Source of the DNA: Halococcus sediminicola
GTDB taxonomy: Archaea > Halobacteriota > Halobacteria > Halobacteriales > Halococcaceae
Reading direction: 5' to 3'
Length of the DNA stretch: 64,000 nucleotides
Assembly: GCF_000755245.1 (NCBI RefSeq)
Contig: NZ_BBMP01000005.1
Coordinates: 62,001-126,000 of the forward strand
Made by a program: the position numbers and the translations under genes. Numbering within the stretch: the stretch's first letter is position 1; the number at the start of each line of letters is the position of its first letter. This document shows, in pieces, positions 11,920-29,469 of this stretch. The notes beneath the pieces were generated by a model. That model ran no database searches. It was not told the DNA's origin and saw nothing but the letters and a program-made list of their open reading frames with translations.

Positions 11920-11990
11920 CTTCCCATCTGCAATTGCTGCCGTCTATTTGTGCGCAATTTTTATGATATCTTAGGATCATTCCATATAGA

Positions 11991-14768
11991 ATGGTCAGCC
12001 TCCTCCCCGAATATCCCTTCTTCATCGACTACCGGGATGAAATGCTATCGAGACTCTCTTCGATTGAACAGTTGGCTGTATTGGACGATGAAATCGCCAA
12101 TAAGGCGGTTCTTAGTCGGTACCAGGGACCGGTCGATTCGTTCGAATGGCGATATTTAGAAAGTCATTATGATGACTTGTTCGTCAAATTCCTCCTCGAC
12201 CGGATCACGGGGATTGTCGATACAACACCGGTTGAGACACACAAACGAGATTTCCACCAATTTCGCCATGGTATTGCAAGGCTCAACCGACATCTCCCGA
12301 CACAACGGTCTGTTACTACCACAACGTTAGCGAAGCCAGCCGAACGGATACTCCTCAAGCGCCTTCGACAATCCGGCTTCAATCCGGACGACCTCTCGCT
12401 ATCGTATATCGAGCGAGGTGGTGGACTGTATCTCCTTGAGCTATTCGTCTCCGCTGCACAGCAGCAGGCACTACACAGAGGGCCATTGCTGACGACACTC
12501 CTCAACGAAGCTAGTACCCTCGGAGAGGGGAATCAAGATTCAGTTTCAGAGCTACTCAACTACCCGGTGTTGATGGTCACTCCGTGGAAAAACCAACGTG
12601 ACGGACTCAACCGGTGGCTAGAGAACGATCAAAAAGGTATTCTTGAGATGGCAACTGCGACCGGCAAAACCGTCGCTGGTATCGCAGCAATAGCATACCT
12701 CTGTGGCGACCTTCCCGAACATCCCGACCAAGAGCCCGCTACTAACGACGCCAAAATCCTCGTTGTCGCTCATTCGAACGCGATCCTCAAACAGTGGGAG
12801 CGCGAAATCCAGGAAAAACTCGGGCTGCCGATGCCCGAGCGCACCGACGCGGATCTCCCCGACAAGCTCCATTTCGCCACTGGCAAGGTCGAGTTCTATA
12901 CGGCTCAGTCACTGCTGCCCCGCTATGATCGCGATCTCGAAGACGAGTACGATCTTGTGATCTACGATGAAGTCCATCACTACTCGAATGTCAAAGGATT
13001 CGGCAAGGCCATCACTCGGCCCAACTACAAAGCTGCAATCGGGCTCTCGGCAACAATCGGCGATGAGGACGGACCGAAGCGCCGTCAGTTGGAGCAGGTC
13101 CTCGCTCCAGTTGTCTACACGTATGGATTACAGGAGGCGTTGGCCGATAGTATCATTCCGGAGTTTGAATGGACCGTCCATCCCACGGCACTCGATCCAC
13201 ACGAACGGAGCGAATGGCAAAAGACGACCGACTCTATTACGAACACCTTCCGAGCGATCAAAGCGAGCCCTGAAACACGGCGCGCCCTTGAACGACTGAG
13301 TGTTCCCTTTACCGAGATGCGAGACCTGGGTGACTTCATCCAGGCGTTTCAGGCTGCAGGCATTGAACGAAACGGGAACGTTCCCGACTCCTGGGAACGA
13401 TTGCAAGCGGCGATCCAGAGTCGTAACTGGATCCGCCACCGGTCCCGCCCGAAGCTCGACGATGCCATCCGACTCGCCAAAGATTACCTGATCGATTCGG
13501 ATCAGCAGGTGAAGCTCGTCATCTTCTCGATGGATATTGCCTCGGCAAACAGGATTGCTGAGGAGCTTCGTGAGATCTCTGATAACGTCTTCTTAGCCCA
13601 CAGTAAACTCGCGAGTTCGTCGAAGAAGAATACAAAGCTCGTCCAGCAGAATATCGATGGCTTCGCGAAAGCACAGAACGGTGTGCTCGTGTCCCCGCGA
13701 TTGCTTGATGAGGGTATCGATGTTCCCGACGCTGAGGTAGGTATCAACGTCGCAGGAACGAAAACACAGCTTCAGCTTGTCCAACGGATGGGTCGGATTC
13801 TTCGCAAACATGGCGATAAGAAGCCCCATTTCCATCACTACATCTCGGTTCCCGACGAAGAATATCTCGAGGGGCTCGACTCAAAGGAGTACGCACAGGA
13901 ACTCAACTGGGTTCGTGAGTTAGGGACCAAGATCGGCCAACAGCCAATCATCGATGACGCGACGGTCAATCCGGACGTTATCCATCATGCAGAACAACGT
14001 GGTAACGAACTCTGGGCACAGGACCTTCTCAACGATATTGGCGTTGAAACGGTTCAAGGAACCATCCATCTCGATCAGGTTCTTGAGGATCTAACTGGGC
14101 CAGCTGCTGGAACGATTAGAAGCCACCTTGAGATAGACGATAATGAGCTAAGTAGGGACACCTGGCAAGCTACGATGGAGGAACTCCGTGAACAGGATTT
14201 ACTACCGGTTCCAGTATTGCAGCGGGTCTGGTGGCTGTTCCCGCTATATCGGGAACGGCCATCGGAGCTGGACGAGCTGTTGGTTGAGGTCGTTCGTGTA
14301 AAGGGAGATGATAGGAAGACTTCGACAGCCACTACGAGTGAGCAAGAATCAGCGATCGAGGATGAAAAAGACGTTGAAGCTGACCAAGATCTCAATGAGA
14401 GTGAGCCTCTGGAATCCGCTCAACAATCGGGACCACCAGATGTCGGCCAGCAGGATACAATACGCGCTAACGGTAGTAATGGAAAGTCCGATGACAAGTG
14501 TGTAAGCCATGGACAGTCTAAGAAATGCGATGATCCGGAGGGGAAAGGAGAGATCAACGCAGAGCCGAAATCACCTCAGCAACCAATATCCATCACCGAT
14601 ACCTCTAGGAGCAGTAATCGATATTCCGACAAGACTCGGAGAAGAGAAACTCCCGCTATTGAGAACAAGGACTCAAATTTGCAGGGAACTGCTAGATTGA
14701 GCGAGTTTGAGTGGCAACAATCGGAAGGTCTACTAGCGAAGTTGTGGAAACGAATTCGTGGCCGCTGA
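11991..14768 (+). CDS. SF2 (DEAD/DEAH-type) helicase
   Basis: 925 aa. Helicase motifs appear in order: Q-like ENDQKGILEM, Walker A TATGKT (~220), DEVHH Walker B (~325), GLSAT motif III (~350), then in the second RecA domain VLVSPRLLDEGIDVP and QRMGRILRKHGD motif VI (~597). The first ~190 residues are a specific helical N-terminal domain. The last ~170 (from ~750) are a Ser/Glu/Lys-rich, low-complexity tail, probably disordered. The type resembles the RAD25/type III restriction-like translocases. It lies 72 bp after the SRA-HNH gene and 119 bp before the AddB-like gene, all on one strand, so it may power either neighbour. Confidence 0.9.
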   Translation: MVSLLPEYPFFIDYRDEMLSRLSSIEQLAVLDDEIANKAVLSRYQGPVDSFEWRYLESHYDDLFVKFLLDRITGIVDTTPVETHKRDFHQFRHGIARLNRHLPTQRSVTTTTLAKPAERILLKRLRQSGFNPDDLSLSYIERGGGLYLLELFVSAAQQQALHRGPLLTTLLNEASTLGEGNQDSVSELLNYPVLMVTPWKNQRDGLNRWLENDQKGILEMATATGKTVAGIAAIAYLCGDLPEHPDQEPATNDAKILVVAHSNAILKQWEREIQEKLGLPMPERTDADLPDKLHFATGKVEFYTAQSLLPRYDRDLEDEYDLVIYDEVHHYSNVKGFGKAITRPNYKAAIGLSATIGDEDGPKRRQLEQVLAPVVYTYGLQEALADSIIPEFEWTVHPTALDPHERSEWQKTTDSITNTFRAIKASPETRRALERLSVPFTEMRDLGDFIQAFQAAGIERNGNVPDSWERLQAAIQSRNWIRHRSRPKLDDAIRLAKDYLIDSDQQVKLVIFSMDIASANRIAEELREISDNVFLAHSKLASSSKKNTKLVQQNIDGFAKAQNGVLVSPRLLDEGIDVPDAEVGINVAGTKTQLQLVQRMGRILRKHGDKKPHFHHYISVPDEEYLEGLDSKEYAQELNWVRELGTKIGQQPIIDDATVNPDVIHHAEQRGNELWAQDLLNDIGVETVQGTIHLDQVLEDLTGPAAGTIRSHLEIDDNELSRDTWQATMEELREQDLLPVPVLQRVWWLFPLYRERPSELDELLVEVVRVKGDDRKTSTATTSEQESAIEDEKDVEADQDLNESEPLESAQQSGPPDVGQQDTIRANGSNGKSDDKCVSHGQSKKCDDPEGKGEINAEPKSPQQPISITDTSRSSNRYSDKTRRRETPAIENKDSNLQGTARLSEFEWQQSEGLLAKLWKRIRGR

Positions 14769-14842
14769 GTTGTTTCGTTGGCGATTTCATCCGGTACCAG
14801 TAGCATACCCTCTCTGTAAGCGGTTGTGTGATATTTGGTACT

Positions 14843-14852
14843 CCCCCCCCCC
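14843..14852 (+). repeat. Run of ten cytosines upstream of the AddB-like gene
   Basis: A C10 homopolymer lies 36 bp before the ATG at 14888, between the SF2 helicase and the AddB-like gene. Tracts of this length are prone to slipped-strand length changes. The position is right for phase-variable promoter or leader spacing, but this is only inference. Confidence 0.6.
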
Positions 14853-14887
14853 TACATTCAAGCAGCAGGCTCTCACTATTGAGCAGT

Positions 14888-17020
14888 ATGCCCTCCGTGA
14901 GCGAATACGACATTGCTCTCTCTGGCAAGCTATACGAATATCCGTTTCTCTCCACCGATATTGGTGATCAGATTGCACCGTTGTATGCAAATCTTGCTGA
15001 AGAATACGGGATTGACAATGTCCTCGTCGTAAAGCGGTTTCCGACTGAGACAGACGATATCGCTGAGTCCCTTGGGAATGCAATCGAAGGTATTGAGCGA
15101 CCGAACGTCGTAGGACTGTCGGCTCACGCAATCCATACTTTAGAAGAACTCCCGAATCCGCCTCGCCAACTCGATATCACTGAATCATCGCTACTACTAT
15201 CTTCGTTTATCAAGCGTCGGAACTGGACTACCGAATACCTTGAGCGAGCATCTGAGAGAGACTCGTTTGAGTTCGACGTCGAGAGACTCGTCCAAGAAGC
15301 GACGTGGCAGGGCAATGTGATTAATACAGACGACCCTGTACTCGCGGAACTCGCGAAGGTCAACGATACCTATCACGAGTGGCTCGCTGATGCGGATCTC
15401 TTGCCGTCACCAGGGACATTCAGCTACCTGCTAGATGCACTTGCCGATACCGACCTCCAGAATCGAGTCCAGGAAACATATGACGCAGTTTTGGCACTAG
15501 AATTCGAGGAATTCACAGCAATTGATCGTGCGTACCTGGCCCGTATCACTCATGATTGCGAATTGATTTGCGTTGCCGAGCGCGACAGCGCCATTCAGCG
15601 GACGTGGAACGAGCCTGGTCGAATCTCCGATTATACGCCGGATCTGCATACCACTACTGAGCAGGGAACGACCCCACGAACGACTCCGGCGGCGATTGCT
15701 GACTTCTTGGCGACTGGTGATACTGCTGGAGAGCCCGACGATGGATTAGCGACAGTCATCGAAGCCACGACGTTCGAAGAGCAAGTCGGGACTGTCGGTG
15801 AAGAAATCGAGCGTCTCCACCGAGTCGAGGATATTCCCTACGACGAAATGGCGGTCGTCCTGCGCGATTCGAATTCGCGAATCCCGGAAACCCTTCGCTT
15901 GTTACGGACGACTGGCATTCCAGTTCGATCGGCGACTGTCAGTGGACTCGAGCAAGATCCTGCAGCGCGTGAATTGTATGCACTCACGAGCTGGTGTCTT
16001 GAGACGGTCGGCACAACAGTCGGAGAGGGAGATGTCGGGTGGTCCACGGACCGGGCCCGAACTGTGCTCAGTGCACGCGTCCCCGATCTCTCTAACGAGA
16101 CGCTGGCCGAGATTGCTGAATGCGGTCGTAATGAGAGCCTCACCGCAGCCCTCGACATGTGGCTGCTACGGTCGAATCTGAAACACCGGACCGCTGCCAA
16201 CGAAGACCCCTTCCAAGCGAAATCCCAGTTCGAACACGTCGATACCGTCCGGTCGCTGGCGCAAACACTGGATGACTCGGACCTTCTCGATGCAACGTGG
16301 GAATCTCTCGGTAGGGGCCTCGAGCGGGAGATGCAACGAGCAACGAGCGACAAGATCGCTACCGAACTCGAGCTCCCAGAGGGTGGAGTCCTCGTCGATG
16401 CAGCTCGTGTACTGAAAAACACCAGCAAGGAGGCAGTCTTCCTTTTGAGCGTCGTCGACCAAGAATACCCCGCCGATCCACAGCTCAACTCGCTGTTTCC
16501 ACCCCCAGTGATCGAACAGTTGGAAGAGTATCCTGCCTTCACGACCCCTGATTCGAGCGACGTTCGGCGTACCTTCGAATACGCCAGAGAGGAGATTACA
16601 CGGCCGCTGCATGCCTATTATGCAGCACTGAGTCGCCGAATGCTCGCGATCGGGGCACGAGCGGCGACGACAAATCTGTATTTCGGTACCTATCGAGAGG
16701 ACCGTACCGGGAGTGGCCGCAACCACCAGCAGTCACGATTTCTCGACGCAGTAGAAGACACGTTCGGCGAACTCGACCGTCTCGATCACGACGACATCCA
16801 CACCCACGGTCGGGCAGTGCGATTTTCGTTGAACCGTGTCGACGATGCGTTCGAAAACGTTCGTCGAGCGGGCTTAGTCCGAGACCCTGTCGATCTCGAC
16901 GCTCTCGAAGCGGATTTCGCTGGAGTCCAGGAACTGCTCCAAGCCGATCCGCCGGAGGATCTATCGGATGCGATCGAAGCACGGGTCGATTTCGCCGAGG
17001 GGGTAGTTCGTCGTGAGTGA
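14888..17020 (+). CDS. AddB-like inactivated UvrD-type helicase subunit
   Basis: 710 aa from ATG 14888 (MPSVSEYD). I reject an in-frame upstream start at 14828 that would read through the C10 tract. The chain follows the UvrD/AddB plan but lacks a Walker A. The place of Walker B is held by LEFEEFTAIDRAYLARITHD, the degenerate form typical of AddB-like partners. Mid-protein IPYDEMAVVLRDSNSRIPE corresponds to the AddB segment before the second RecA-like domain. KEAVFLLSVVDQEYPADPQLNSL matches the VFxxGxxExxFP region of AddB. It has no recognisable nuclease domain of its own. The ORF overlaps the next gene by 8 bp, so translation is coupled. It is likely a structural/recognition subunit of an AddAB-like complex. 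Confidence 0.8.
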   Translation: MPSVSEYDIALSGKLYEYPFLSTDIGDQIAPLYANLAEEYGIDNVLVVKRFPTETDDIAESLGNAIEGIERPNVVGLSAHAIHTLEELPNPPRQLDITESSLLLSSFIKRRNWTTEYLERASERDSFEFDVERLVQEATWQGNVINTDDPVLAELAKVNDTYHEWLADADLLPSPGTFSYLLDALADTDLQNRVQETYDAVLALEFEEFTAIDRAYLARITHDCELICVAERDSAIQRTWNEPGRISDYTPDLHTTTEQGTTPRTTPAAIADFLATGDTAGEPDDGLATVIEATTFEEQVGTVGEEIERLHRVEDIPYDEMAVVLRDSNSRIPETLRLLRTTGIPVRSATVSGLEQDPAARELYALTSWCLETVGTTVGEGDVGWSTDRARTVLSARVPDLSNETLAEIAECGRNESLTAALDMWLLRSNLKHRTAANEDPFQAKSQFEHVDTVRSLAQTLDDSDLLDATWESLGRGLEREMQRATSDKIATELELPEGGVLVDAARVLKNTSKEAVFLLSVVDQEYPADPQLNSLFPPPVIEQLEEYPAFTTPDSSDVRRTFEYAREEITRPLHAYYAALSRRMLAIGARAATTNLYFGTYREDRTGSGRNHQQSRFLDAVEDTFGELDRLDHDDIHTHGRAVRFSLNRVDDAFENVRRAGLVRDPVDLDALEADFAGVQELLQADPPEDLSDAIEARVDFAEGVVRRE

Positions 17021-17924
17021 CGATCGACAGCCCGTTTCGCCGTCGAGTCTAGCAGTGTACGCCACCTGTCCGCGCCAGTTCGAATACGATAAACGGTGGC
17101 AAGTCGAGACACCCGAAGCCTCCCGCCGCTATCTCGATCGAGGGCTCGTCTATCACGGAGTAATCGAAGACACCTGTGAGCAGTTCAGAGACGAGGAAGC
17201 AACTAACGAGGAGATCCGGCGCTTCGCGTTCGAGCGCCTCGATCAGCGATGGGTGACCGAGACTGATCGAGCGCAGTACGCATCCGATGCTCAGTATCAC
17301 TACGATCGCGATCTCACGAGTGCCGCGCTCGAATCGTTTTTCGACACCGATGGACTAGACCACGTTCGCAATTCAGTCGTGACTGAAGAATGGCTCACCT
17401 GCGAGCACAATGGGGTCCAGTTGCGCGGTCGTGCTGATAACATCGTTCGCACCGATGACGGGATTCGCGTCGTCGATTACAAAGGCTCACTCAACGGGAT
17501 CGTCAGCTGGTACTCGGCCGATCAGATCAGTCAGCATCGAGCGGGCGAGGAGTACGCTGCAGGAATCCTCAAAAGCGTCTTTCAGGCGGCGACGTACATC
17601 GAGGGCGCAAAACAACTCGAGATGTACGACCCAGACATGGATGTCGAATTTTCGTTCTACGCGTTATTGAAGGATAAAACCCGGACGCCGCACACGGAGG
17701 GTATTCGAGTCACTGTCTCCGGCGGCGAGCGCGAGGTCACCGACATCTACGAGGACAATCGGGAGGACATCTGGGAGATAATCGCCAACTGCTACAGGGG
17801 AATCATCGGAGAGCACTACGAGCCCGAGCGCTGGGAGCAGATCCGTGAGCACGCGTGTGGGGACTGTGATTACCAGTCGATGTGTGGCGACTACCTCAGT
17901 GGGGAGGTGCGTATCGATGGCTAA
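17013..17924 (+). CDS. Cas4/RecB-like PD-(D/E)XK exonuclease with Fe-S cysteines
   Basis: 303 aa, GTG start at 17013. It begins PVSPSSLAVYATCPRQFEYD, the standard start of Cas4/AddB-type nuclease domains. Active-site residues are H49, D142 (RGRADNIV) and D155-x-K157 (IRVVDYKGS), followed by Q191 in VFQAATYIEG. C19 plus C282, C285 and C291 (CGDCDYQSMC) are the four ligands of a 4Fe-4S cluster. It overlaps both flanking genes by 8 bp, so the three are translationally coupled. The domain is one normally fused to the C-terminus of AddB. Here it is a separate polypeptide, suggesting a split AddB: helicase-like part upstream, nuclease here. No cas1/cas2 is nearby, so a CRISPR adaptation role is unlikely. 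Confidence 0.88.
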   Translation: MSDDRQPVSPSSLAVYATCPRQFEYDKRWQVETPEASRRYLDRGLVYHGVIEDTCEQFRDEEATNEEIRRFAFERLDQRWVTETDRAQYASDAQYHYDRDLTSAALESFFDTDGLDHVRNSVVTEEWLTCEHNGVQLRGRADNIVRTDDGIRVVDYKGSLNGIVSWYSADQISQHRAGEEYAAGILKSVFQAATYIEGAKQLEMYDPDMDVEFSFYALLKDKTRTPHTEGIRVTVSGGEREVTDIYEDNREDIWEIIANCYRGIIGEHYEPERWEQIREHACGDCDYQSMCGDYLSGEVRIDG

Positions 17925-20900
17925 CGAGGACCCACCCATGAACGAGAGCGCTCAGGATCCGGCTCCCAACGGCGACGCTGAAGGCATGCCGGACCCGCGG
18001 CCAGACCAGGAAGCGATCATCGAATCCGACGAGTATCCGATGCGCGTGCTCGCCGGTGCCGGGACCGGGAAGACGTTCACGATGGTGCGGAAAATCGAGC
18101 AGTTGCTCGAAGGGGACACTGCACCGGATCGAATCCTCGCGCTGACGTTCACGAACAAAGCTGCCGACTCGATGCGCGAGAAGCTCGTCGATCGAGTGGG
18201 GCCCCAAGGCCACGATATCGAGGCCTACACCTATCACGCAGTCTGCCACGAACTGCTGCAGGATTTCGCGTATCACGCCGATCTCGATCCGCGCTACTCG
18301 ATCGCAACGGACGCGGATCGACTGGCGATCGTCTACGACGTACTCGATGACGTGCCCTATCGGTTCACGAACCCGGATGTCTACGAAGGGGTCGCATTCG
18401 CCGACGGAGCGACCGACCGGCTCCTGAAATTCGTCCAAGTGATGAAGCGGGCCGGCATCATGCCTGCCGATCTTCGGGAGTACCTCGTCGAACCGGCCCG
18501 TCTGATCGAGCTCGAAGGCCTCGTCGAACGCATCGAGACTGCCGTCGAAGAGCATCTTCGGGTCGGTTGGCAGACGATGACCGACGAGCGAATCGAAGAG
18601 CTACAGAGCCGACTAGAGACCTTCCAAGACGAACTGCAGGCCGAACACGACGCGTTGGCCGACGACGGTATCGAAGCCGATATCGCCGGCTATCTCGACG
18701 TGATGGACGGAGCATGCGATGCGCTAATGGAGTTTTTCGAGCGGCGATCGTCGGAGATCGTCGATGGCGATCTCACAGCAGCCCTGAAGCTTCCGGCCCA
18801 TCTGTTCGGATCGTACAGTAACGCGCCATCGGGTATGCCCTCGATATCGTACGAATTCCCCAAGAAACTCCGAACGTTCGTCGAGAGCTGTCAGACCGTC
18901 TCGGACCTCGTCGAGGGATACGAAGCCTACGAAAAACGGCTTCATGAGGAGGATCTCCTCGATTTCAACGACCTCGTGTTGCGAACCGTCGAGTTGCTCG
19001 AGGACGATTCGGTTAACGACTGGATCACCGGACAGTACGACTACGTTTTCTGTGACGAGTATCAGGATACCGACGCCGTCCAGTTCGAGCTAGTCCAGCG
19101 AATGGTTCGTGACGACCAACTATTCGTGGTTGGCGATGATGATCAGGCGATCTACGAATGGCGTGGCGCGGACGTCGACAATATCGGGCCACGCCTCGAT
19201 GCAGCATTCCCCTCGTTGACCGACCGGACGCTCGAAGAGAACTTCCGCTCGCGCCAGCCCATTCTCGATCTCGCGAACAACGCACTCGACGAACTCGACG
19301 AGCGTGGCAGTGACAAGGAACTCACGGCGGTCGAAGACAAGGCCGACGCCACTGAGGGAGTGATCACGATGGAGGGGGCCGAGGAGTCGGACGACCAGGC
19401 TGAGCAGATCGTGAACGCGATCACGCGGCTGCTGAGCGGCGATGGGTCACAGATCGACGAGGAGTACTCGCCGGGCGACATCGCGATTCTCGTCCGGAAG
19501 AACCGGCATGCGCGACCGATTATCGACGGCCTTTCCGAGCGCGGCATTCCGTACGAACTCGGTGGCGATCTCGCTGCAGAGTCAGTCGGTGTCGAAACCG
19601 TCGTTGCTGGCCTGAAGGTGCTTGCCGATCCGAACGATGAGGTTAGTCTCAACCGACTCCTACGAATGCGCTACCGGCTGCACGAATCCGATCTGCGGCG
19701 GCTCAATATCAGGCGTCCAAGCGGTGGCGGCGGCACACTTCAGGAGCGACTCCTCGAACTGCCGCTGGAGACGTTCGAGGAGCCCGAACGAATCGAACAG
19801 GCTCGAGAGGATCTGCAGGAACTGTGGTCGCTCCGATCGACATACTCGCTCTCGCAACTCTATCGGGAGCTGAAATCGACGCTGAATCTCGAGTGGTTCC
19901 TCTCGGAACAAGAGCGGCGTGATCTCAAGGCTATCGACGAGATTATCGATTCGTTCGACGAGAGCACGATCGAGCCCGAGCTATCGACCGACTTCATCGA
20001 GTTTCTCACTCGCCACGGATCGATTACGGAAGGATCCAGCCGGAGCATGGAACAGCAGCCCGAGACCGACGCGACTGCCGTCTCGATCATGACGATCCAC
20101 AAGAGCAAGGGTCTCGAATTTCCTGTCGCCGTTCTCCCCCGCCTCGAAGCCGACCAGTGGGAGCCAAGCACCCGGACGTACGACGACATCGAACACGCCC
20201 TCACGGAGGGCGATCCTGCAACGGTGGATTTCGCTCGTCCCGACGAACGCGAGGCACGCCGGCTGCTCCACGTTGGGATCACGCGGGCCGAGGACTGGTC
20301 GATTCTCGTTGGTCGTCACGAGGAAGCCGACGAAACCGACGAGGATGACGGGATTTCGGCCGAAATGGTCGACGAGATACTCGGAACTACCGTCCCCTGG
20401 AGTGCTGCAGGCGTCTCGTTTCCGATCTGGGAGACGATTCAGTCGAGCCTACCGTCGACGGCGATCGATGGGACGGATACTCTCGCAACACCGATCGAAA
20501 CGACCGAGCGAGTAGCAGCGATCGACGACGGTCGTTCTCTCTCGCGCTCGGAGGCCCAAGAGCGGATATTCGAACTCGCACGAGCAATGCTATCTGGTGA
20601 TCTGGTTTCGACCGGCCGAGAAGACAGTCCAATAGACCCCTCTGTCCTCGGCGAGCCACGTGGTCAGCGCCTTCAGCGACGACACAGCTACACCTCCCTG
20701 GATACACTCACCACTTGCACCCGGCAGCACTACCTCGATCATGTCATCAGAGCGTATAGTGATCCGAGTGCAGCGATCTCGTCAAAGGGTTCTGCTAAGA
20801 GAGGTTCTACTGGTGGGCCGGAAACACCGAGCGTCCGAGTCGTAGGGCTCCTCTTTCATGCTGTTGCGGAGCGAGCGGCCAAACGTGGCTACGAGACGCC

Positions 20901-21432
20901 GGAGCGGTGGAAACAGGCCGCCGAGTCGATCGCCGCTGCTCGGGGGCAACGTGGCGCTCTCGATCGTGTTATCGACTGTATCGACCGCTACTTCACGATG
21001 GTCGTCAGTGAGTGGTCCATTCGTGGTGCGGAGGTCGATTTCGATCTCACAATCGAGGGCAACACCGTGGTCGGACAGATCGATGCGTTGTATCACACGA
21101 CCGACGGCGAGAAAGTCGTGATCGACTACAAAGCAACCGATCGTGACCGATCGATCGATTCGGATCTCCAGTTGCCGATCTATCTCCTTGCTGCTCGCGA
21201 CCTCTTTGGGGAATCGATCGCCACCGCCGGCTATGCGTACGTGGGTCGTTACGGCCCGAAGGTCGTGACGCGAACGTTTGCCCGGGAGGAGTTACAGGCT
21301 GCTCGCGAAGAGCTTCGAGAGCGCCTTCAGGCAGCCGAGCATAGCTCCTACGGTGACTACCAAGCTGGAGACCATTGCCAATACTGTGCTCACCAAAATC
21401 TCGCTTGTAGTGACGCTATCGAGCTGGATTAA
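17917..21432 (+). CDS. AddA/RecB-like UvrD helicase-nuclease
   Basis: 1171 aa from the ATG at 17917 (an upstream frame to 17845 lies inside the preceding gene). SF1A helicase motifs are complete: AGAGTGKTFTM, ALTFTNKAADSM, FCDEYQDTDAVQ, VVGDDDQAIYEWRGAD, LEENFRSRQPIL, IMTIHKSKGLEFPVAVLP and LLHVGITRAED. The C-terminal ~250 residues are a RecB-type PD-(D/E)XK nuclease with VGQIDALYH, VVIDYKATD and LQLPIY. A 4Fe-4S set is formed by CTRQHYLDH and HCQYCAHQNLAC. With the two coupled upstream genes this makes an AddAB/RecBCD-like end-processing machine. Archaea usually resect ends with HerA-NurA/Mre11-Rad50, so an AddAB-like set is accessory here and fits DNA degradation or anti-phage defence. Confidence 0.92.
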   Translation: MANEDPPMNESAQDPAPNGDAEGMPDPRPDQEAIIESDEYPMRVLAGAGTGKTFTMVRKIEQLLEGDTAPDRILALTFTNKAADSMREKLVDRVGPQGHDIEAYTYHAVCHELLQDFAYHADLDPRYSIATDADRLAIVYDVLDDVPYRFTNPDVYEGVAFADGATDRLLKFVQVMKRAGIMPADLREYLVEPARLIELEGLVERIETAVEEHLRVGWQTMTDERIEELQSRLETFQDELQAEHDALADDGIEADIAGYLDVMDGACDALMEFFERRSSEIVDGDLTAALKLPAHLFGSYSNAPSGMPSISYEFPKKLRTFVESCQTVSDLVEGYEAYEKRLHEEDLLDFNDLVLRTVELLEDDSVNDWITGQYDYVFCDEYQDTDAVQFELVQRMVRDDQLFVVGDDDQAIYEWRGADVDNIGPRLDAAFPSLTDRTLEENFRSRQPILDLANNALDELDERGSDKELTAVEDKADATEGVITMEGAEESDDQAEQIVNAITRLLSGDGSQIDEEYSPGDIAILVRKNRHARPIIDGLSERGIPYELGGDLAAESVGVETVVAGLKVLADPNDEVSLNRLLRMRYRLHESDLRRLNIRRPSGGGGTLQERLLELPLETFEEPERIEQAREDLQELWSLRSTYSLSQLYRELKSTLNLEWFLSEQERRDLKAIDEIIDSFDESTIEPELSTDFIEFLTRHGSITEGSSRSMEQQPETDATAVSIMTIHKSKGLEFPVAVLPRLEADQWEPSTRTYDDIEHALTEGDPATVDFARPDEREARRLLHVGITRAEDWSILVGRHEEADETDEDDGISAEMVDEILGTTVPWSAAGVSFPIWETIQSSLPSTAIDGTDTLATPIETTERVAAIDDGRSLSRSEAQERIFELARAMLSGDLVSTGREDSPIDPSVLGEPRGQRLQRRHSYTSLDTLTTCTRQHYLDHVIRAYSDPSAAISSKGSAKRGSTGGPETPSVRVVGLLFHAVAERAAKRGYETPERWKQAAESIAAARGQRGALDRVIDCIDRYFTMVVSEWSIRGAEVDFDLTIEGNTVVGQIDALYHTTDGEKVVIDYKATDRDRSIDSDLQLPIYLLAARDLFGESIATAGYAYVGRYGPKVVTRTFAREELQAAREELRERLQAAEHSSYGDYQAGDHCQYCAHQNLACSDAIELD

Positions 21433-21455: not shown

Positions 21456-22475
21456 CTACTGATCGTGGGCTTCGATAATCGCATTGTCGCGCTTGATGAG
21501 GGGTTCGACTTTCGGGCTCCGACAGTCGACTTCGAGTTTTTCATCGTGCCACGCCATTCCTCCCTTTCCTTTCCAGACGCCGTACAACGTCACTTTGGGC
21601 AGCGTGAGGACACCGAAGAGAATACTCAGAAGATAGAGGGTGTCCTGTATCTCTTGCCAGGATCCAGTCAATTTTCGTGGCAGTCCTTCCGGGAACTCAA
21701 CCCGCTGGGCATGGATGCGATGTGAGCGAGCACGCTCGATGAAGTCGCGGTCGTTGCTAAATAGCAAGACTTCCTTGCGGGTTTCGCGTTCGTATTCGTC
21801 GTAGCCTTCGATGATCTCCTCATCGCCCGTGTCCGTCGTGAACTCATCACCGTACTGTTGGTCGCGCAGCTGGCGATAGCAGAGTTCGCCCAGTCGACCT
21901 TCGCGACTCGCCCCCGCAGGTTGGTTCCAGAGTGCTTCGAATTCGGGGCCGAACGCTTCAACAAGCGATTGGGTGTCTTTTCGCTTGCCGCCCCAATCTA
22001 GCTCATCGCGGATGCCAGTGGCGAGCGCAAACCCGTTGATAACTGGCTCGTCAGTGGAACGTAAGCCAAGCATATGTGCTGGTCGCCAGGGCATGATATT
22101 GGTATCGAACCCTGCTAAGACAGGGTCAGCACCCGCGTTGAGGTCTGGGTTCCCATAGCGATCGAGAAAGTCCGCGATCTCCGAGTCGTTCCCTGGCGAC
22201 AGTAGTCCCCCGGCGAGAAAGGCACTGAGATACGATCGTGGACTCGGTAGTTCGTTGACCGCTGGTGCGCCATAGGAGCTATTGACGGCACTGCGGGCAT
22301 CGGAATACGTCTGAAAGTCCTTCGACAGGCGAACAGTACTCGACTGTGGGCCACCGAGTTCGATTCTGAACAGCTCGCCAACGTCACTCCCGGGATGACT
22401 GACTGGGATAGTCGTCTCACCACTATCGTATAGCGCGTTCAGCAAAACCGTCAGTCGAGAACGTGCGAGTTGCAT
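21456..22475 (-). CDS. PIN-like nuclease, partner of CARF protein
   Basis: 339 aa. Residues ~118-260 show a PIN-type pattern: LAGFDTNIMPW (D124, N126), an acidic residue in GIRDELDW (E158), an acidic helix YDEYERET, then LLFSNDRDFIERA (D242, D244) at the end of a strand. This is the D...E...(N/T)D.DF set of metal-dependent PIN RNases, with a larger spacing than VapC. The ~115-residue N-terminal part is specific and unassigned. Near the C-terminus, LYLLSILFGVLTLPKVTLYGVW is hydrophobic enough to be a membrane or buried segment. Its ATG abuts the stop codon of the upstream CARF gene with no gap, and it ends 23 bp from the AddA-like stop on the other strand. It is probably the effector half of a CARF-controlled pair. 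Confidence 0.68.
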   Translation of the reverse strand: MQLARSRLTVLLNALYDSGETTIPVSHPGSDVGELFRIELGGPQSSTVRLSKDFQTYSDARSAVNSSYGAPAVNELPSPRSYLSAFLAGGLLSPGNDSEIADFLDRYGNPDLNAGADPVLAGFDTNIMPWRPAHMLGLRSTDEPVINGFALATGIRDELDWGGKRKDTQSLVEAFGPEFEALWNQPAGASREGRLGELCYRQLRDQQYGDEFTTDTGDEEIIEGYDEYERETRKEVLLFSNDRDFIERARSHRIHAQRVEFPEGLPRKLTGSWQEIQDTLYLLSILFGVLTLPKVTLYGVWKGKGGMAWHDEKLEVDCRSPKVEPLIKRDNAIIEAHDQ

Positions 22476-22955
22476 TCAGTAGACCTCCTTGAAATCGATA
22501 AGCTCGCTCTCAGTTCGTGGAATTTCGGGATAGGATCGGCCATGATAGTCGGAAGATTTGAGATGGAAATAGTAGACGCGATCGGCGTCATGAATCATTC
22601 CAACGGCAAATGCGATCGCCGACATGAACTTCCGCCCGGGAGTGAAATCGATCGCCACCTCTCCCTCGGTGTCGTCCGTGTCGTCGATTGCATCCTTAGC
22701 ATGTGCCTGAATTTTGTCGAACTCGAGTTCGTTGTCGATCGAGGTTAGTCTGATCTCCGGTTCGTCCCCACCATATGCAGTGATGATCTCCGTCGCGATA
22801 TCGAGCGCCTGATCCACTTGTTCGGAGACGCCAGGATTTTCGAGGATATGCAGACGGTCGGGGATGAATCCCTGCTCACAGGCAGCGTTGATCGGATTGA
22901 CAATTGCCTTGAGTGTAGTACTTCCATTCGTGACCCACACGTTCACCATGAGCAT
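22476..22955 (-). CDS. Stand-alone CARF-domain sensor protein
   Basis: 159 aa. It is a small Rossmann-like domain: strand 1 and loop VNVWVTNGSTTLKAIVNPIN (4-23), alternating helices and strands, then the characteristic VAIDFTPGRKFMSAIAFAVG (100-119) followed by RVYYFHL. The pair of a Thr/Asn-rich loop after strand 1 and the D-x-T-(P/G)-G-x-K-x-M-S motif is the ligand pocket signature of CARF domains. CARF domains bind cyclic oligoadenylates made by type III CRISPR complexes or, in other systems, other nucleotides. No effector domain is fused; the adjacent PIN-like gene supplies it. No type III CRISPR gene is in this window, so the activating ligand would have to come from elsewhere or be different. 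Confidence 0.78.
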   Translation of the reverse strand: MLMVNVWVTNGSTTLKAIVNPINAACEQGFIPDRLHILENPGVSEQVDQALDIATEIITAYGGDEPEIRLTSIDNELEFDKIQAHAKDAIDDTDDTEGEVAIDFTPGRKFMSAIAFAVGMIHDADRVYYFHLKSSDYHGRSYPEIPRTESELIDFKEVY

Positions 22956-23070: not shown

Positions 23071-24171
23071 TTAAGGGGCAGCAACGTCGAAAACCTCATA
23101 GAGCCGATCAAGTGTTTGCTGATCTTGCAATCTTGTAACCGTGTTCTGGTTGGCGTATAGTCCCTTTTCCCAGAACGCATTTTCTACGTCAAGCGTTTTC
23201 TCCCACTCAACGCCGATCAGATACTCCCGAAGATCGGGGTCCTCTTCGTCTCGGCTTAAATCGCCTTTGAGGGGCGCTTCAGTGATTGGAATCTCATCTT
23301 CTTCACCTTCAACACTGACCATAAATTCCGGTGCCGGCGTCTTTTCTTGAGTGACAATCCCCACTCCGATATATCCTTCTCCAGGATTATAGACAAAGAT
23401 GCGTTTGCCTTCCGCCACTTTCTCCATCGTTCGATGATACCACTCGCCGTGGCCACCGGTAATGAATCCGTATTCACGAGCATCTTCCCATTTCCGGTAC
23501 TCGTTCTGTCCGAAATTTGCGTAGAAATCGTATCCATTCCAGGGTTCTTGGATGGCCTCTTCCTCTGTTTCTTCTGATTCGTAGGGATCCTTTAGCCAGG
23601 TGCGGGCAATGTACTCCCGGCCCTCTTCCATGTAGTAGTTGAATCGAATCGCGTTTATCGGAACCTCAAATTCTTCGGAAAGATACTCGATAATGCGCTC
23701 CGTAGAGCTGTCTAATTCGGAAGAAACAATCGTCAACTTATGCTGGTTGTTCACTTCTTCAGGTCCGGTTGGCGCGTCGTCTCGAGCGGGATAGAAAGCA
23801 GAGCCGAATCCCGCTTCGAACGTATTGGTGTGTTCGTCAGATGCTTCATAAAGATCCTTTACAGCCTGATAGTCAAGGCGTCTAACCCATGACGCATAGT
23901 CAAGAATCTGCGCAGTAACATCTCGTGGTGAGCGATCTCGCTTCAGTTCAACAACGTGAAGATCACCGCCTTCATCTATCGCTAAAATATCGAGGCGTTT
24001 CCCGCTTGGTGTCGTTATCTGTCGGTCGATAACGAGGAGCGGCTGGCCGAGGACATTTGGATCTTGGAGGAGGAACCGTTCTAAACGGTCTTCACTGTCC
24101 AGATTCGTAGAAGAGACACGATGAAAGGTATCGTCGCCCCCGATTCTCCAGAGCCCTAGATCGATTGGCAT
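23071..24171 (-). CDS. NucS-like PD-(D/E)XK endonuclease with EVE/PUA-like C-terminal domain
   Basis: 366 aa from ATG 24171; a longer frame to 24321 crosses the divergent promoter and the start of the neighbour, so I reject it. Residues 25-110 carry the NucS/DUF91 nuclease signature: LERFLLQDPNVLG, KRLDILAIDEGGDLHVVELK (D61, E75, K77) and RDVTAQILDYASWV (Q88). Residues ~215-290, with ANFGQNEYRKWEDAREYGF, FITGGHGEW and FVYNPGEGYIGVGIV, look like an EVE/PUA-superfamily domain that binds modified bases. That makes a modification-sensing restriction enzyme plausible. It is divergent from the SRA-EVE-HNH gene (83-bp shared promoter region) and upstream of the CARF-PIN pair on the same strand. Confidence 0.82.
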   Translation of the reverse strand: MPIDLGLWRIGGDDTFHRVSSTNLDSEDRLERFLLQDPNVLGQPLLVIDRQITTPSGKRLDILAIDEGGDLHVVELKRDRSPRDVTAQILDYASWVRRLDYQAVKDLYEASDEHTNTFEAGFGSAFYPARDDAPTGPEEVNNQHKLTIVSSELDSSTERIIEYLSEEFEVPINAIRFNYYMEEGREYIARTWLKDPYESEETEEEAIQEPWNGYDFYANFGQNEYRKWEDAREYGFITGGHGEWYHRTMEKVAEGKRIFVYNPGEGYIGVGIVTQEKTPAPEFMVSVEGEEDEIPITEAPLKGDLSRDEEDPDLREYLIGVEWEKTLDVENAFWEKGLYANQNTVTRLQDQQTLDRLYEVFDVAAP

Positions 24172-24254
24172 TGGTACTCTCCATTTATCGCTTACATAAA
24201 TTATGCTCGCTGTTTTTGGTGGGTTATATTGCAACCTGCTTCTGATCGAGAAGT

Positions 24255-25694
24255 ATGAATACTCACCCACCAGAGAATCTCTCCCAAGGTGATCAGCTCG
24301 ATCAGGCCGATATTGAGGCACTCTTTGATACGGGCTTTGGCTATCAGATCTCGGGGATCAACCCTCGCCGTGACGATAGTGACCGACGATATGTACTCGT
24401 TTTCGCCAACGAAGACGGTCCGTATAGCGATACCGTACAAGCTGGTCAATTCGAGTATATTGGAGAAGGACTGAACGGCGATCAATCCAGTTCATCCCCA
24501 GGGAACGCAGTGTTGATCGATGCTGTGTTGAATCCGGTGCCGATCTACTTTTTCTACAAGGGTACAGGCGAACCCCACTGGGAATATCAGGGTCAAGTAG
24601 AGGTGGTAGGACACGATTATACTGAGCGAGATGGCCGCAACGTCTTCGTGTTTCAAATGGCGCATAAAGCGTCTGCGGAGCACGTTAGTGAGAGCGAATC
24701 GAGACCAGGACTCTATCTCGTGCCGATCAGTGATGAGTGGTACAGCGAATTCGAGCGAACAGTCGTCTCGCCGTATACTTTCGACAGTGCTGATGTAACT
24801 GCCCTACCCGACGAAGTAACGCAACCCGATAGAGTACGCATCTGGGGAACCACTGAGACTGATTCGTCGAAAAAGCAGCGTGCCATCGACCAACTGGAAA
24901 CCGGTGACATCATGCTTTTCTACTATAGCGGTAAATTCATCGCGGCTGGTCGCGCTGGTATGGTTCTCACAAGTCGCTCTCTTGGAACTTCGATATGGGC
25001 AAATCCATCCAGCAAACACATCTTCACCCTCACAGAGTACACCGACAATCCGTTGTCAATCGAACGAATCTGGCCAGCATTAGGTTACGAAGGCCGCCAG
25101 GTCGTGCAAGGGTTCACACGAGCAAGTACCGAACGGGTTCACCGACTCATCGCTGAGCTGGGAGCTGTCGAAGCTGTGCTCAATCCATCTCCAACAGTAG
25201 TGACTAACGCGGATCCCATCGCAGTTGACCGCGAGAAAGAACGGGTAGCGACTGCTCTCGAAACGAGTCCAACTCTCATCGAAGAGACAATCGAGTATAC
25301 CGAGCATCGGCGACGAGCACGAGACACTGCGTTCGCTACCATCGTGAAGGATGCATACAGCAATACCTGTGCCGTCTGTGGGAGTCAACGCGAATCACCC
25401 GATGGAATCCCCGAAGTTGAAGCCGCTCACATCTATCCAAAACGGGAGGGTGGGAGCGATGATCCACGTAATGGACTCGCTCTCTGTCGATTGCATCACT
25501 GGGCATTCGACGCCGGCTGGTTCGGATTCTCTGATGACTGTGGGATTGTTGTTCGGGAGGCTCCTTCGAGGACTGGCTACGAAGAATTTCAGACGCTCGA
25601 GGGCACGGAACTGCAGGTGCCGGAAAACGAGTACAAGCCACACCCGCTTTTTTTGAGTGCCCATCGTGATCTAACGGGCTTCGAGAGTAGCTGA
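24255..25694 (+). CDS. SRA-like + EVE-like + HNH modification-dependent endonuclease
   Basis: 479 aa with three modules. Residues ~20-140 are SRA-like (GYQISGINPRRDDSDRRYVL, then FEYIGEGLNGDQ and IYFFYKGTG). Residues ~190-300 are PUA/EVE-like (VRIWGTTETDSSKKQRAIDQ, LETGDIMLFYYSGKFIAAGR). Residues ~355-425 are HNH with CAVC (372-375), EAAHIYPKREGG (H392), N406 and CRLHHWAFD. Two separate base-reading modules on one HNH blade is the architecture of type IV restriction enzymes that cut DNA with modified bases. It is the second SRA-HNH protein in this island and is not closely similar to the one at 11113. It is divergent from the NucS-like gene. Confidence 0.87.
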   Translation: MNTHPPENLSQGDQLDQADIEALFDTGFGYQISGINPRRDDSDRRYVLVFANEDGPYSDTVQAGQFEYIGEGLNGDQSSSSPGNAVLIDAVLNPVPIYFFYKGTGEPHWEYQGQVEVVGHDYTERDGRNVFVFQMAHKASAEHVSESESRPGLYLVPISDEWYSEFERTVVSPYTFDSADVTALPDEVTQPDRVRIWGTTETDSSKKQRAIDQLETGDIMLFYYSGKFIAAGRAGMVLTSRSLGTSIWANPSSKHIFTLTEYTDNPLSIERIWPALGYEGRQVVQGFTRASTERVHRLIAELGAVEAVLNPSPTVVTNADPIAVDREKERVATALETSPTLIEETIEYTEHRRRARDTAFATIVKDAYSNTCAVCGSQRESPDGIPEVEAAHIYPKREGGSDDPRNGLALCRLHHWAFDAGWFGFSDDCGIVVREAPSRTGYEEFQTLEGTELQVPENEYKPHPLFLSAHRDLTGFESS

Positions 25695-26058: not shown

Positions 26059-27021
26059 TCAGAACTGTTGAATTCGCTGTCGAAACACATTATGAAATCG
26101 GTCACCATATTCCAGTAGCCAATCGAGATACTCCTCCCACTTCTCGCGGTTTTCGAGGTCAGCATGCCGTGTGATTCTGAGATTGCTCCGCATATTTCCG
26201 CCTCGTGTTTCTCGAGGTTCCTCCCACTCAACTTCGCATTCAAGCTCCCGTTCGATAGCGTCCTCTTCGTCTTTCAACTCCCAAAACGCCTCTTCGTTGT
26301 CTTCGATGATGAGATCCAGACATAATATGTCCTCTTCGAAGAGATTAACAAATGAGATATGGAATCCACCCTTCCCGATCGGGTTGCTGTAGTAGTGGCG
26401 TGCCTTTGGTGTGCGAGATCGGAGTCGGGTCGATGAGTGCTCGATTCGGTCACGGAATTGGGTCCAAAATTCCTCTTGTAGCTGCTTGACGTCCGATATT
26501 TCGCCATCCGACCGCTGGGCCTTCTCCTTCCACTCGCTTGGATCTTCGACGGGATTCAACCGGATCGCTGGTGGAGAGTCACTAATCTTCCAGACTTCCA
26601 ACCGAACGGCGAACAAGTCAATGCCTTCTCGACTGTTTTGATTCAACCACTGGAACGCATCGCGGTGCTCGTCGCTGAATTCGGGCGCGATCCAGACGAT
26701 AATATCGGCATCCACGCCGGCCGCATACGCGATAGATTTTCCGAGATGATCGTGGTCAGACTGCTCCAACTGGTTTTCGATAACGACCTGTCGACTATCA
26801 TCAACGACCTCAGCAAGAATATCGAGATTGTATCGTCCAACACTCCGCTCTGTCTCGATCACTTCCAAATCCAGACCGAGTACGTCCTCTAAGTAGGATC
26901 CTTCCTCGTCTCGAATCGAGTTCGCTAACCACGGAGTGAAGTTATGAGCTTCATGTTTCCAGTACTCCCGTACGTTTTGAGGCACAAGTTCGTGAAAGAC
27001 AGGTCCGTCGGGTTCTGCCAT
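26059..27021 (-). CDS. DUF4268-type protein with PD-(D/E)XK-like nuclease core
   Basis: 320 aa from ATG 27021 (an ATG three codons upstream, at 27030, is also possible). Residues ~45-130, with GRYNLDILAEVVDDSRQVVI, ENQLEQSDHDHLGKSIAYAA and DADIIVWIAPEF, are a restriction-endonuclease-like core. The active-site set reads D...E-N-Q, the Lys being replaced by Gln as in several PD-(D/E)XK subfamilies. The C-terminal ~150 residues, with FWTQFRDRIEHS, FHISFVNLFEEDILCLDL and WLLEYGDRFHNVFRQRI, match the DUF4268 domain. Such proteins are frequent in defence islands and sometimes accompany restriction-modification loci. No methyltransferase is nearby. Confidence 0.8.
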   Translation of the reverse strand: MAEPDGPVFHELVPQNVREYWKHEAHNFTPWLANSIRDEEGSYLEDVLGLDLEVIETERSVGRYNLDILAEVVDDSRQVVIENQLEQSDHDHLGKSIAYAAGVDADIIVWIAPEFSDEHRDAFQWLNQNSREGIDLFAVRLEVWKISDSPPAIRLNPVEDPSEWKEKAQRSDGEISDVKQLQEEFWTQFRDRIEHSSTRLRSRTPKARHYYSNPIGKGGFHISFVNLFEEDILCLDLIIEDNEEAFWELKDEEDAIERELECEVEWEEPRETRGGNMRSNLRITRHADLENREKWEEYLDWLLEYGDRFHNVFRQRIQQF

Positions 27022-27341
27022 GACTGACAACTCCCTCTACGAATACTAAAGCGTTGTACGGTTTCATTGACGTGTATCCAGTAAGCCGTATCGTCGGCGA
27101 CAACGATGGCTGTGGACTTGCTCGTACCGTCACTGCCTCCACCAATCGGTGACCGTTTCTCATGTTCGCAGTGCTACAGCACGATCCACCATTTCAGCGC
27201 GACCGATACGTAGTCACTCTGTGCTATTGGGAATTGTAAGCAGGAATTGTGAGGGAAGGAATGCCCTCCTCCCTCACGGTGTCTTGCGGGTTTGGATGCT
27301 AAATCGCTGGGCTTTCAGTTGCCGGCAGACAAAATCGGTGA
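27022..27341. other. 320-bp stretch without a recognisable gene
   Basis: This lies upstream of both the DUF4268-like gene (minus) and the 69-aa gene (plus). I see no family signature. It would hold both divergent promoters. Confidence 0.4.
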
Positions 27342-28262: not shown

Positions 28263-29469
28263 GTGTTCGAGCCAGCGAACGTTCCGGAGGCGCATAGCGT
28301 GGTACAGATCGATGCAGTCATCGAGGACTTCCTGACGGACAAAGGCAAAGGTCAGGGTGGCGAGAGCGGTAACTATCGTCAGGACGCAGGCCGAGAGCTC
28401 GATCGGTTCGTCGGCTTCCTCACCGGCCACGAAGATAGCCCGACGTCGTTCGATGAGTTGGGTTCGAGCCACCTGCGCGAGTACGCCCGTCACCTCACCC
28501 GCCAGGGATGGACTGCGGGCACAGTACGCACCTACTACGCGTACGTCTCGGCGTTCTGTGGCTGGGCCGTCCGCGAAGGCCATCTCGCTGAAAACGTCGC
28601 TCAGCGGCGCAACGCCACCGAACCCATTCCCGACGACGGAGGTCACAAGAGCGGCGACCAACAGGCGTGGTCCGCTGAAGATCGCCAGCAACTCACCAGC
28701 TTCGTCGACGAGCAGGCCAGCACTGCAATCGACAACGTCAGCGAAAACCGTGAGGCGGCAATCAAAACCTGCCGCGACCGTGCGCTGGTCTATCTCCTCT
28801 CGTACTCTAGCGTGCGTGGTGCGGAGATTCTTCATGATCGGAGCGACGAGCGCCGTCAAGGGACTTCGGTGGGATGACGTCCACCTCGAAGACCGCTATG
28901 CGACGGTCTTCGCCAAAAAGCAGCGCCTCGACGATCGAGGTCTTCCTAGCCCGATGATCCATCCGCTACAGATGTACCGGAAAATCCTCGACGCACCGAG
29001 TGAGAGCTGGCCGGTGTTTCCCTCGTTTCATCGCCCGACACTCTCTCAACGAGTGAAGGACGAGTTGGACAGTCGTGGATATACCGCCATGGAGATCGAG
29101 GAGATATGTGTCGACCATTCGTTAATCGAGGTCTGTGTTGAGTACGACATCGAACCGCCATCGATAACGACCGACGCTGGCCGGCACGTTCTCAAACAGC
29201 TCTGCGAGGAGGCGGGTATCGAACTCGATGACGACGAAGAGTATCTCATGCCCCATGGTGCTCGGCGCGGTGCCGGCGAGGTCCTTGTCCGTACGTCAGG
29301 TCATGCAGCTGCCGCTCGTGCCCTCGACAACTCTGAAGAGGTCGTTCGCGAGCACTACTCGCATATCGAAGCCGGTGACCTTGCCGACCAGATGACCAAC
29401 GCTTTCGAGGAAGCCGATCAGCAGGGCAGCTTCAGTAATGAATGGGGTGGGCATAGGTTACCCTTCTAA
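28263..29469 (+). pseudogene. Tyrosine recombinase (XerC/D-type integrase), frameshifted
   Basis: The N-terminal SAM-like core-binding domain (DAVIEDFLTDKGKG, DELGSSHLREYARHLTRQGW, TVRTYYAYVSAFCGWAVREG) and the first catalytic Arg (SSVRGAEIL) are in one frame, which stops at 28877. The rest is in another frame ending at 29469: GLRWDDVHLED, HGARRGAGEV (H-x-x-R), GHAAAARALDN and the nucleophile REHYSHIEAG. One extra base near 28862 (after CAAGGG, before CTTCGGTGG) accounts for the break; removing it restores DERRQG-LRWDD. All catalytic residues otherwise remain, so the break is recent, a sequencing error, or a programmed shift. A truncated paralogue lies at 42380-42575. Confidence 0.85.

What the first reader, a model, noticed from the sequence alone, without database searches (positions are those of the whole stretch)
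23071..25694. Divergent pair of nucleases that both carry EVE/PUA-like base readers
A NucS-like D...ExK nuclease with an EVE-like C-terminal domain and an SRA-EVE-HNH enzyme share an 83-bp promoter region. Two different blades with similar base-reading modules hint at a joint system against modified DNA, and are next to the CARF-PIN operon. The EVE call on the NucS-like protein is by pattern only.
Basis: partly seen in the sequence, partly recalled or inferred. Interest (0 to 1): 0.52.

Follow-up and report, generated by a model that had tools for sequence, protein, structure and literature searches.

The report
Two neighbouring modified-DNA cutters, not partners
Two back-to-back genes in a salt-loving archaeon encode two different enzymes that probably cut foreign DNA carrying modified bases, but they look like two separate weapons stored side by side rather than one joint machine.

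Summary
P0001 (23071-24171, -, 366 aa) has a NucS-like D61..E75xK77 nuclease and a C-terminal EVE-type PUA fold: its AlphaFold model aligns residues 213-366 to the EVE domain of VcaM4I at Z 9.6. P0002 (24255-25694, +, 479 aa) is an SRA-like / EVE-YTH-like / HNH enzyme. The gap is 83 bp.

The joint-system idea is not supported. Of 391 Halobacteria genomes 12 hold P0001, and 2 of those 12 also hold a P0002 relative, about the 1.5 expected; only the window has them adjacent. P0001 is divergent from its upstream neighbour at 14 of 15 haloarchaeal loci, but the neighbour keeps changing. Its most recurrent neighbour is a DUF4268 nuclease, also in the window (26059-27030).

P0002 is the better lead. 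It has the chassis of HHPV4I, a characterised Gm6ATC-dependent enzyme, but the winged-helix reader is replaced by a domain whose nearest solved relative is the m6A-reading YTH domain of an archaeal McrB (E 7e-5). Eighteen relatives fall into three middle-module classes: linker (9), winged helix (3), YTH/EVE-like (6). I predict an m6A-dependent restriction enzyme (inferred). P0001 belongs to PADLOC candidate family PDC-S11.

The parts
23071..24171 (-). P0001: PD-(D/E)XK (NucS-C-like) nuclease with C-terminal EVE-type domain, 366 aa, ATG start at 24171
   Evidence: (PDC-S11, E 6.5e-133 over residues 1-363)
23632..24093 (-). P0001 nuclease domain, residues 27-180, D61/E75/K77
   Evidence: (2vld Z 7.9 over residues 26-180)
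23080..23547 (-). P0001 EVE/PUA-fold domain, residues 209-364
   Evidence: VcaM4I EVE Z 9.6, PH1033 9.2, MJECL36 8.7, YTHDF2 8.6
24172..24254 (.). 83-bp divergent intergenic region; by eye one TATA-like element for each gene about 28 bp before its start codon (TTATAT 24224-24229 on +; ATAATTTAT read on -, 24196-24204)
   Evidence: sequence; archaeal promoter spacing is recalled, not tested
24255..25694 (+). P0002: SRA-like / EVE-YTH-like / HNH endonuclease, 479 aa
24267..24668 (+). P0002 SRA-like domain, residues 5-138
   Evidence: 64% identical to HHPV4I over residues 1-138; weak ScoMcrA match at 47-90, E 0.013
24693..25190 (+). P0002 middle EVE/YTH-like reader, residues about 147-312; W197 and W248 invariant in five long-form relatives
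25302..25673 (+). P0002 HNH domain, residues 350-473 (H392, N406, H415; C372/C375/C411)
   Evidence: equivalents H296/N310/H319 are essential in HHPV4I (PMC10101028, section 7)
26059..27030 (-). P0005: DUF4268 nuclease, the gene family most often found near P0001-type nucleases
21456..22955 (-). CARF (22476-22955) and PIN (21456-22475) pair, downstream of P0001 with a 115-bp gap; independent neighbour

Best explanation
These are two independent modification-dependent (type IV-like) restriction nucleases stored side by side in a haloarchaeal defence island. P0001 is a stand-alone PD-(D/E)XK-EVE enzyme: the EVE domain would flip out and read a modified base (most likely a modified pyrimidine, as in VcaM4I) and direct the D/E/K nuclease to cut that DNA. 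P0002 is an HHPV4I-type SRA-like/HNH chassis in which the winged-helix reader is replaced by a YTH/EVE-like domain: that domain would read N6-methyladenine in a particular sequence context and the HNH domain would cut nearby. Shown: domain make-up, conservation of catalytic residues, lack of pair conservation, modular middle domain. Inferred: base specificities, DNA cleavage, antiviral role.
For: P0001: structure match to VcaM4I EVE and to NucS, invariant active site, full-length PDC-S11 match. Its neighbours in other genomes include type I RM, type III RM, BREX, AddAB-like genes, a wH-HNH gene and Mrr_cat genes. P0002: same ends as HHPV4I; the middle-domain profile finds the T. gammatolerans McrB YTH domain at E 7e-5, and at 3e-4 with a smaller alignment; three discrete middle-module classes between the same ends, interspersed in FastTree trees. 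Pair not conserved.
Against: No cleavage data. The YTH/EVE assignment of P0002 rests on sequence profiles only; the fold prediction failed. The McrB hits are weak in absolute terms, although the next, unrelated PDB hits start only at E 0.09. The host genome carries candidate m6A methyltransferases of its own, so a simple m6A reader would attack self DNA unless it is sequence selective. EVE and YTH are close for P0001 too (Z 9.6 vs 8.6; rows within 1 are ties), so its base is uncertain. The interspersion of reader states in the trees has only moderate support.
Confidence: 0.6

Rival explanations
1. P0001 and P0002 form one joint two-nuclease system regulated from a shared promoter region.
For: 83-bp divergent gap; both have PUA-superfamily readers; in H. 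jeotgali both families lie within 12.3 kb; P0001 relatives elsewhere often sit next to some other nuclease, e.g. wH-HNH in G033, HNH in Providencia, PDDEXK_4 in Klebsiella and Mrr_cat in G361.
Against: 2 of 12 P0001 genomes hold a P0002 relative, 1.5 expected; adjacent only in the window; divergence is general for P0001 (14 of 15); the two readers are barely related.
Confidence: 0.1
2. The real partner of P0001 is the DUF4268 nuclease (P0005, 26059-27030), and P0002 happens to lie between them.
For: P0001-type nucleases and DUF4268 lie within 15 kb in 8 cases, gaps 76-4567 bp, about 0.17 expected at random in the 17 genomes with both; 171 bp apart in Halomontanus; PADLOC files both under PDC-S11.
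Against: 5 of those 8 cases involve P0001-type proteins that match only weakly or in part (E above 1e-30), without a demonstrated EVE domain. For true P0001 orthologs it is 4 of 15 loci (window, G134, G352, Halomontanus). Of 12 further DUF4268 loci inspected (L155-L166) only L156 has a P0001-type gene. Random placement is a weak null, because defence genes cluster.
Confidence: 0.2
3. P0001 is a NucS/EndoMS mismatch-repair paralog, not a defence nuclease.
For: Nuclease core matches NucS (E 1.3e-5; Z 7.9).
Against: Only the nuclease part of NucS (126-207 of 251) is matched; NCBIfam score 33 against a cut-off of 216; the same genome has three NucS copies over the cut-off, one with a stop; patchy distribution, 12 of 391 genomes.
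Confidence: 0.05
4. P0002 reads a modified cytosine (5mC/5hmC) through its SRA-like or EVE-like domain rather than m6A.
For: 19 of 29 middle-domain relatives match Pfam EVE; VcaM4I EVE-HNH reads 5mC/5hmC (PMC7897488 abstract).
Against: The best solved relative of the middle domain is an m6A reader; in the closest characterised relative the SRA-like domain is dispensable and modified cytosine is not cut efficiently (PMC10101028 sections 7 and 12).
Confidence: 0.3
5. P0001 belongs to the CARF-PIN operon downstream of it.
For: Same strand, 115-bp gap.
Against: The PIN protein occurs on 12 plasmids, of which one also appears among the listed P0001 hits, about 70 kb away.
Confidence: 0.05

Closest known systems
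HHPV4I / HhiV4I (SRA/PUA-wH-HNH, Gm6ATC-dependent; PMC10101028, PMC11037411)
   Same: N-terminal SRA-like domain (64% identity) and HNH domain with H/N/H residues, collinear with P0002
   Different: P0002 has a 197-aa stretch with a YTH/EVE-like module where HHPV4I has a 99-aa stretch with a winged helix
T. gammatolerans McrB N-terminal YTH domain (6p0f/6p0g)
   Same: Closest solved relative of P0002's middle domain (E 7e-5)
   Different: Fused to a GTPase motor in McrB, to HNH here; pocket residues not verified
VcaM4I (EVE-HNH, reads 5mC/5hmC; PMC7897488)
   Same: Best structural match of P0001's C-terminal domain (Z 9.6); a modification reader fused to a nuclease
   Different: P0001 has a PD-(D/E)XK nuclease placed before the EVE domain
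PADLOC PDC-S11 candidate family
   Same: Full-length match of P0001 (E 6.5e-133) and, by other models, of P0005
   Different: Candidate only; no mechanism given in the sources I could read
EVE-PD(D/E)XK and EVE-HNH type IV enzymes (Bell et al. 2020, PMC7641849 section 9)
   Same: Same architectures predicted for modification-dependent restriction
   Different: That text (searched for NucS and DUF91) does not name this family
NucS/EndoMS
   Same: Nuclease core
   Different: P0001 lacks the N-terminal domain and has an EVE domain instead

Membership tests
NucS/EndoMS | D/E/K nuclease core | tested here: met
   alignment to 2vld; invariant
NucS/EndoMS | N-terminal DNA-binding domain and full-length model score | tested here: not met
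   only positions 126-207 of 251 aligned; 33 vs 216 bits
EVE-PD(D/E)XK type IV restriction enzyme (P0001) | PUA-superfamily EVE-type domain | tested here: met
   residues 213-366, VcaM4I Z 9.6; model quality moderate
EVE-PD(D/E)XK type IV restriction enzyme (P0001) | modification-dependent DNA cleavage | not testable with these tools
   needs biochemistry
PDC-S11 | full-length PADLOC model match | tested here: met
   E 6.5e-133, residues 1-363 of 366
HHPV4I-type PUA-wH-HNH (P0002) | SRA-like N-terminus and HNH C-terminus | tested here: met
HHPV4I-type PUA-wH-HNH (P0002) | winged-helix middle domain | tested here: not met
   no wH match to the window's middle module; YTH/EVE profile E 1.5e-59 (the window is itself a row of that profile)
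YTH-HNH m6A reader (P0002) | YTH-type domain by sequence profile | tested here: met
   (E 3e-4, 7e-5)
YTH-HNH m6A reader (P0002) | aromatic cage residues and fold | tested here: inconclusive
   W197 and W248 invariant in 5 rows, but no usable model and pocket not mapped
Phosphorothioate-dependent restriction enzyme (ScoMcrA type) | sulfur-binding domain | tested here: not met
   PT model matched only over its HNH part (155-279 of 284)
Joint P0001-P0002 system | conserved gene pair in other genomes | tested here: not met

The most novel reading that the evidence does not exclude
One SRA-like/HNH restriction chassis of haloarchaea accepts interchangeable readers at a single site (none, DpnI-like winged helix, or McrB-like YTH), so that P0002 is a naturally rewired m6A-dependent enzyme. 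P0001 is a portable EVE-guided nuclease that settles beside whatever DNA-modification-sensitive system is present and covers viruses whose modified bases escape that neighbour.
Probability: 0.3. Interest if true: 0.6.

Novelty: new variant of a known kind. Interest (0 to 1): 0.38.

Why it matters
If right, P0002 is an m6A-dependent restriction enzyme of a make-up (SRA-like, YTH-like, HNH) that I did not find described; the 2024 paper on wH fusions lists YTH-HNH enzymes as future work (PMC11037411, passages). Comparing the linker, wH and YTH versions of the same chassis would directly test whether the middle module sets base and sequence specificity. P0001 gives the candidate family PDC-S11 a concrete mechanism to test: EVE-guided cutting of modified DNA.

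Tried and rejected
Joint system: tested by co-occurrence and neighbourhood, rejected. CARF-PIN link: rejected. NucS repair role: unlikely. Phosphorothioate reader: not supported. AddAB-like module as common partner: seen in the genus of H. jeotgali (L067, L069/L090, L094) and as a different AddAB-like set in the window, so not general. G033's divergent HNH neighbour was first thought to be HHPV4I-like; it is a wH-wH-HNH protein.

What failed: the P0002 model (2-row alignment, pLDDT 37) was not searched. Viral contigs gave no P0001 relative and no extra middle-domain rows. The phage collection gave no P0001 match. No pocket residues could be mapped; the paper with the McrB-YTH residues is not held. 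Searching the P0001 EVE profile against PDB sequences gave nothing useful (best E 0.5); only structure comparison shows the fold. The sigma-70/terminator scan found nothing above chance and does not model archaeal promoters.

Rows left out: one search used 55 P0001-type places (53, two), 70 of 71 listed DUF4268 places and 25 of 62 listed P0002-like places. The 37 left out add no shared genome with the 12 P0001 ortholog genomes, by the genome list. The script stopped with an error at the 20th of 24 loci, so the five remaining bacterial loci are described from annotation only. For PADLOC naming, 40 of the 107 neighbour ORFs were scanned, none of them from L079 or from the bacterial loci L084-L086.

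Full report
What is there. The window lies in a haloarchaeal genome, probably Halococcus: the same-genus genome G235 has a contig of the same length (20,939 bases) and the same match as Halococcus thailandensis contig 123. Two genes stand back to back. P0001 runs from ATG 24171 down to 23071 (366 aa). P0002 runs from 24255 to 25694 (479 aa). The gap is 83 bp. By eye, each direction has a TATA-like element about 28 bp before its start codon; this is recalled promoter lore applied to the sequence and was not tested.

P0001. The N-terminal half is a PD-(D/E)XK nuclease. D61, E75 and K77 are invariant in 10 of 10 haloarchaeal rows and line up with D160, E174 and K176 of Pyrococcus abyssi NucS (the catalytic role of those NucS residues is recalled). 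The C-terminal half, about 209-364, is a PUA-superfamily domain. An AlphaFold model from nine sequences (mean pLDDT 64.6) aligns there to the EVE domain of VcaM4I (Z 9.6, 126 residues, 3.8 A), PH1033 (9.2), MJECL36 (8.7), then YTH domains (8.6 and below), and over 26-180 to NucS (7.9). The search tool warns that Z under 8 can mean only a common arrangement; the EVE rows stand above that and fill the domain. Foldseek alone gave NucS at 4e-4 and YTH/EVE domains from 4e-3. P0001 is not NucS: it lacks the N-terminal domain, scores 33 against 216 bits, and the same genome holds three NucS genes above the cut-off, one with a stop. It is a full-length member of the PADLOC candidate defence family PDC-S11 (E 6.5e-133). 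One paper notes PDC-S11 in 10 P. aeruginosa strains, 90% of them phage-resistant (PMC10855318, one passage). Relatives reach Cohnella, a Paenibacillaceae bacterium and Limimaricola (35-37% identity) and plasmids of Kocuria, Rhodococcus, Deinococcus, Priestia, Klebsiella and Providencia (41 of 93 plasmid records with a match cover at least 80% of the query).

P0002. Residues 1-138 are 64% and residues 289-476 51% identical to HHPV4I, the restriction enzyme of archaeal virus HHPV4. HHPV4I is an SRA-wH-HNH enzyme that needs Gm6ATC; its winged helix does the recognition and its SRA-like domain is dispensable (PMC10101028, abstract and sections 5, 7, 12). The essential HNH residues H296, N310 and H319 of HHPV4I correspond to H392, N406 and H415. 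The middle of P0002 is different. A profile of 29 relatives (the window, 20 stretches chosen from the hits, 8 from the earlier alignment) finds the N-terminal domain of Thermococcus gammatolerans McrB first, E 7e-5, then the same protein again, then unrelated chains from 0.09. A smaller profile gave 3e-4. That McrB domain is a YTH fold that targets 6mA DNA (PMC7680126, passage). Individually 19 of 29 members match Pfam EVE, best 7e-4, while the window's own domain matches nothing. I therefore call it EVE/YTH-like, leaning to YTH. Its structure model failed, so this rests on sequence.

One chassis, three readers. Among the loci I scanned, 28 ORFs carried both the SRA-like and the HNH part, 18 after removing duplicates. 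Their middle falls into three separate length and sequence classes: linkers of 19-36 aa (9), winged helices of 99-103 aa (3) and YTH/EVE-like modules of 185-197 aa (6, including the window). Five of the six YTH/EVE-like members are rows of the profile used, and the sixth has a close relative in it, so their E-values are not independent evidence; the length classes are. FastTree trees of the flanking parts mix the classes (for example a linker form groups with a wH form at 0.98-0.99 in the HNH and combined trees, 0.84 in the SRA tree), but several other supports are low. This is the most interesting point of the locus.

Is it a pair? In 391 Halobacteria genomes, P0001 orthologs (E <= 1e-40) occur in 12 and P0002 relatives of any make-up (E <= 1e-60) in 50. 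Two genomes hold both, the window and H. jeotgali; 1.5 would be expected. In H. jeotgali they are 12.3 kb apart on one strand, with P0002 interrupted. None of the four other intact long forms in that sample (G096, G125, G200, G068) has P0001 in the 18-20 kb fetched. Across 15 haloarchaeal P0001 loci the upstream neighbour (ORFs of 120 aa or more) is divergent in 14, the exception being Halomontanus, yet the neighbour is a type III methyltransferase (L061), a 670-aa methyltransferase-like protein (L066), a wH-HNH protein (L068), a Cas4-like protein (L144) and so on. Divergence is thus a habit of haloarchaeal P0001, not a sign of partnership. In nine bacterial loci the upstream gene is divergent only in Kocuria (for L084, L085, L086, L091; annotation for the rest).

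The recurrent neighbour. DUF4268 nucleases (P0005 family) occur in 61 of 391 genomes. P0001-type genes lie within 15 kb of one in 8 cases against about 0.17 expected at random in the 17 genomes with both. Only three of these (window, G134, G352) are true P0001 orthologs; Halomontanus adds a fourth. The random expectation ignores that defence genes cluster, so this is a lead, not proof of a system.

Mechanism. P0001: EVE reads a flipped modified base, probably a modified cytosine by analogy with VcaM4I (PMC7897488, abstract), and the nuclease cuts. P0002: the YTH/EVE-like module reads m6A, and the HNH cuts near it, as HHPV4I does. Against the latter, the host has candidate adenine methyltransferases, so P0002 must be selective for a motif the host does not methylate. 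All specificity statements are inference.

Known or new. Bell et al. already list EVE-PD(D/E)XK and EVE-HNH type IV enzymes (PMC7641849, section 9), so neither architecture is new in kind. YTH-HNH fusions are named as future work in PMC11037411 (passages). Searches for PDC-S11, EVE domains with restriction of modified DNA, DUF4268/DUF91, NucS with EVE and YTH-HNH listed no study of either protein in the held library, judged by titles and abstract starts; most subscription papers and bioRxiv are not in it.

Noticed in passing
window 11053-21432: HNH nuclease (11053-11919; PADLOC type IV model, E 1e-22), helicase with similarity to Dnd/Pbe restriction helicases (11991-14768), a 730-aa protein without family match (14828-17020), a PD-(D/E)XK nuclease (17013-17924) and a UvrD-nuclease fusion (17845-21432): a large, mostly unassigned defence cluster.
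   Followed up: partly
window 6733-7725: A tandem winged-helix HNH protein, 59% identical to the gene that lies divergently beside the P0001 ortholog in another haloarchaeon (L068, 123-bp gap).
   Followed up: partly
window 26059-27030 and L067, L089, L144, L149-L153, L156: DUF4268 nucleases repeatedly sit within a few kb of NucS-like nucleases with various C-termini.
   Followed up: partly
window 21456-22955: CARF and PIN encoded as two adjacent genes; PIN relatives are found on 12 haloarchaeal plasmids, where the match mostly spans two annotated genes, one called a CRISPR ring nuclease in three records.
   Followed up: partly
window 28263-29469: Integrase-like ORFs in overlapping frames near the edge of the defence region, possibly a decayed integrase.
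   Followed up: no
own genome G000 C9:8688, C5:46777, C23:20358: Three NucS/EndoMS genes above the model cut-off in one genome, one with an internal stop.
   Followed up: no
L036/L090 and L037: Halalkalicoccus copies of P0002 are interrupted by a stop (H. jeotgali and G215), suggesting decay.
   Followed up: no
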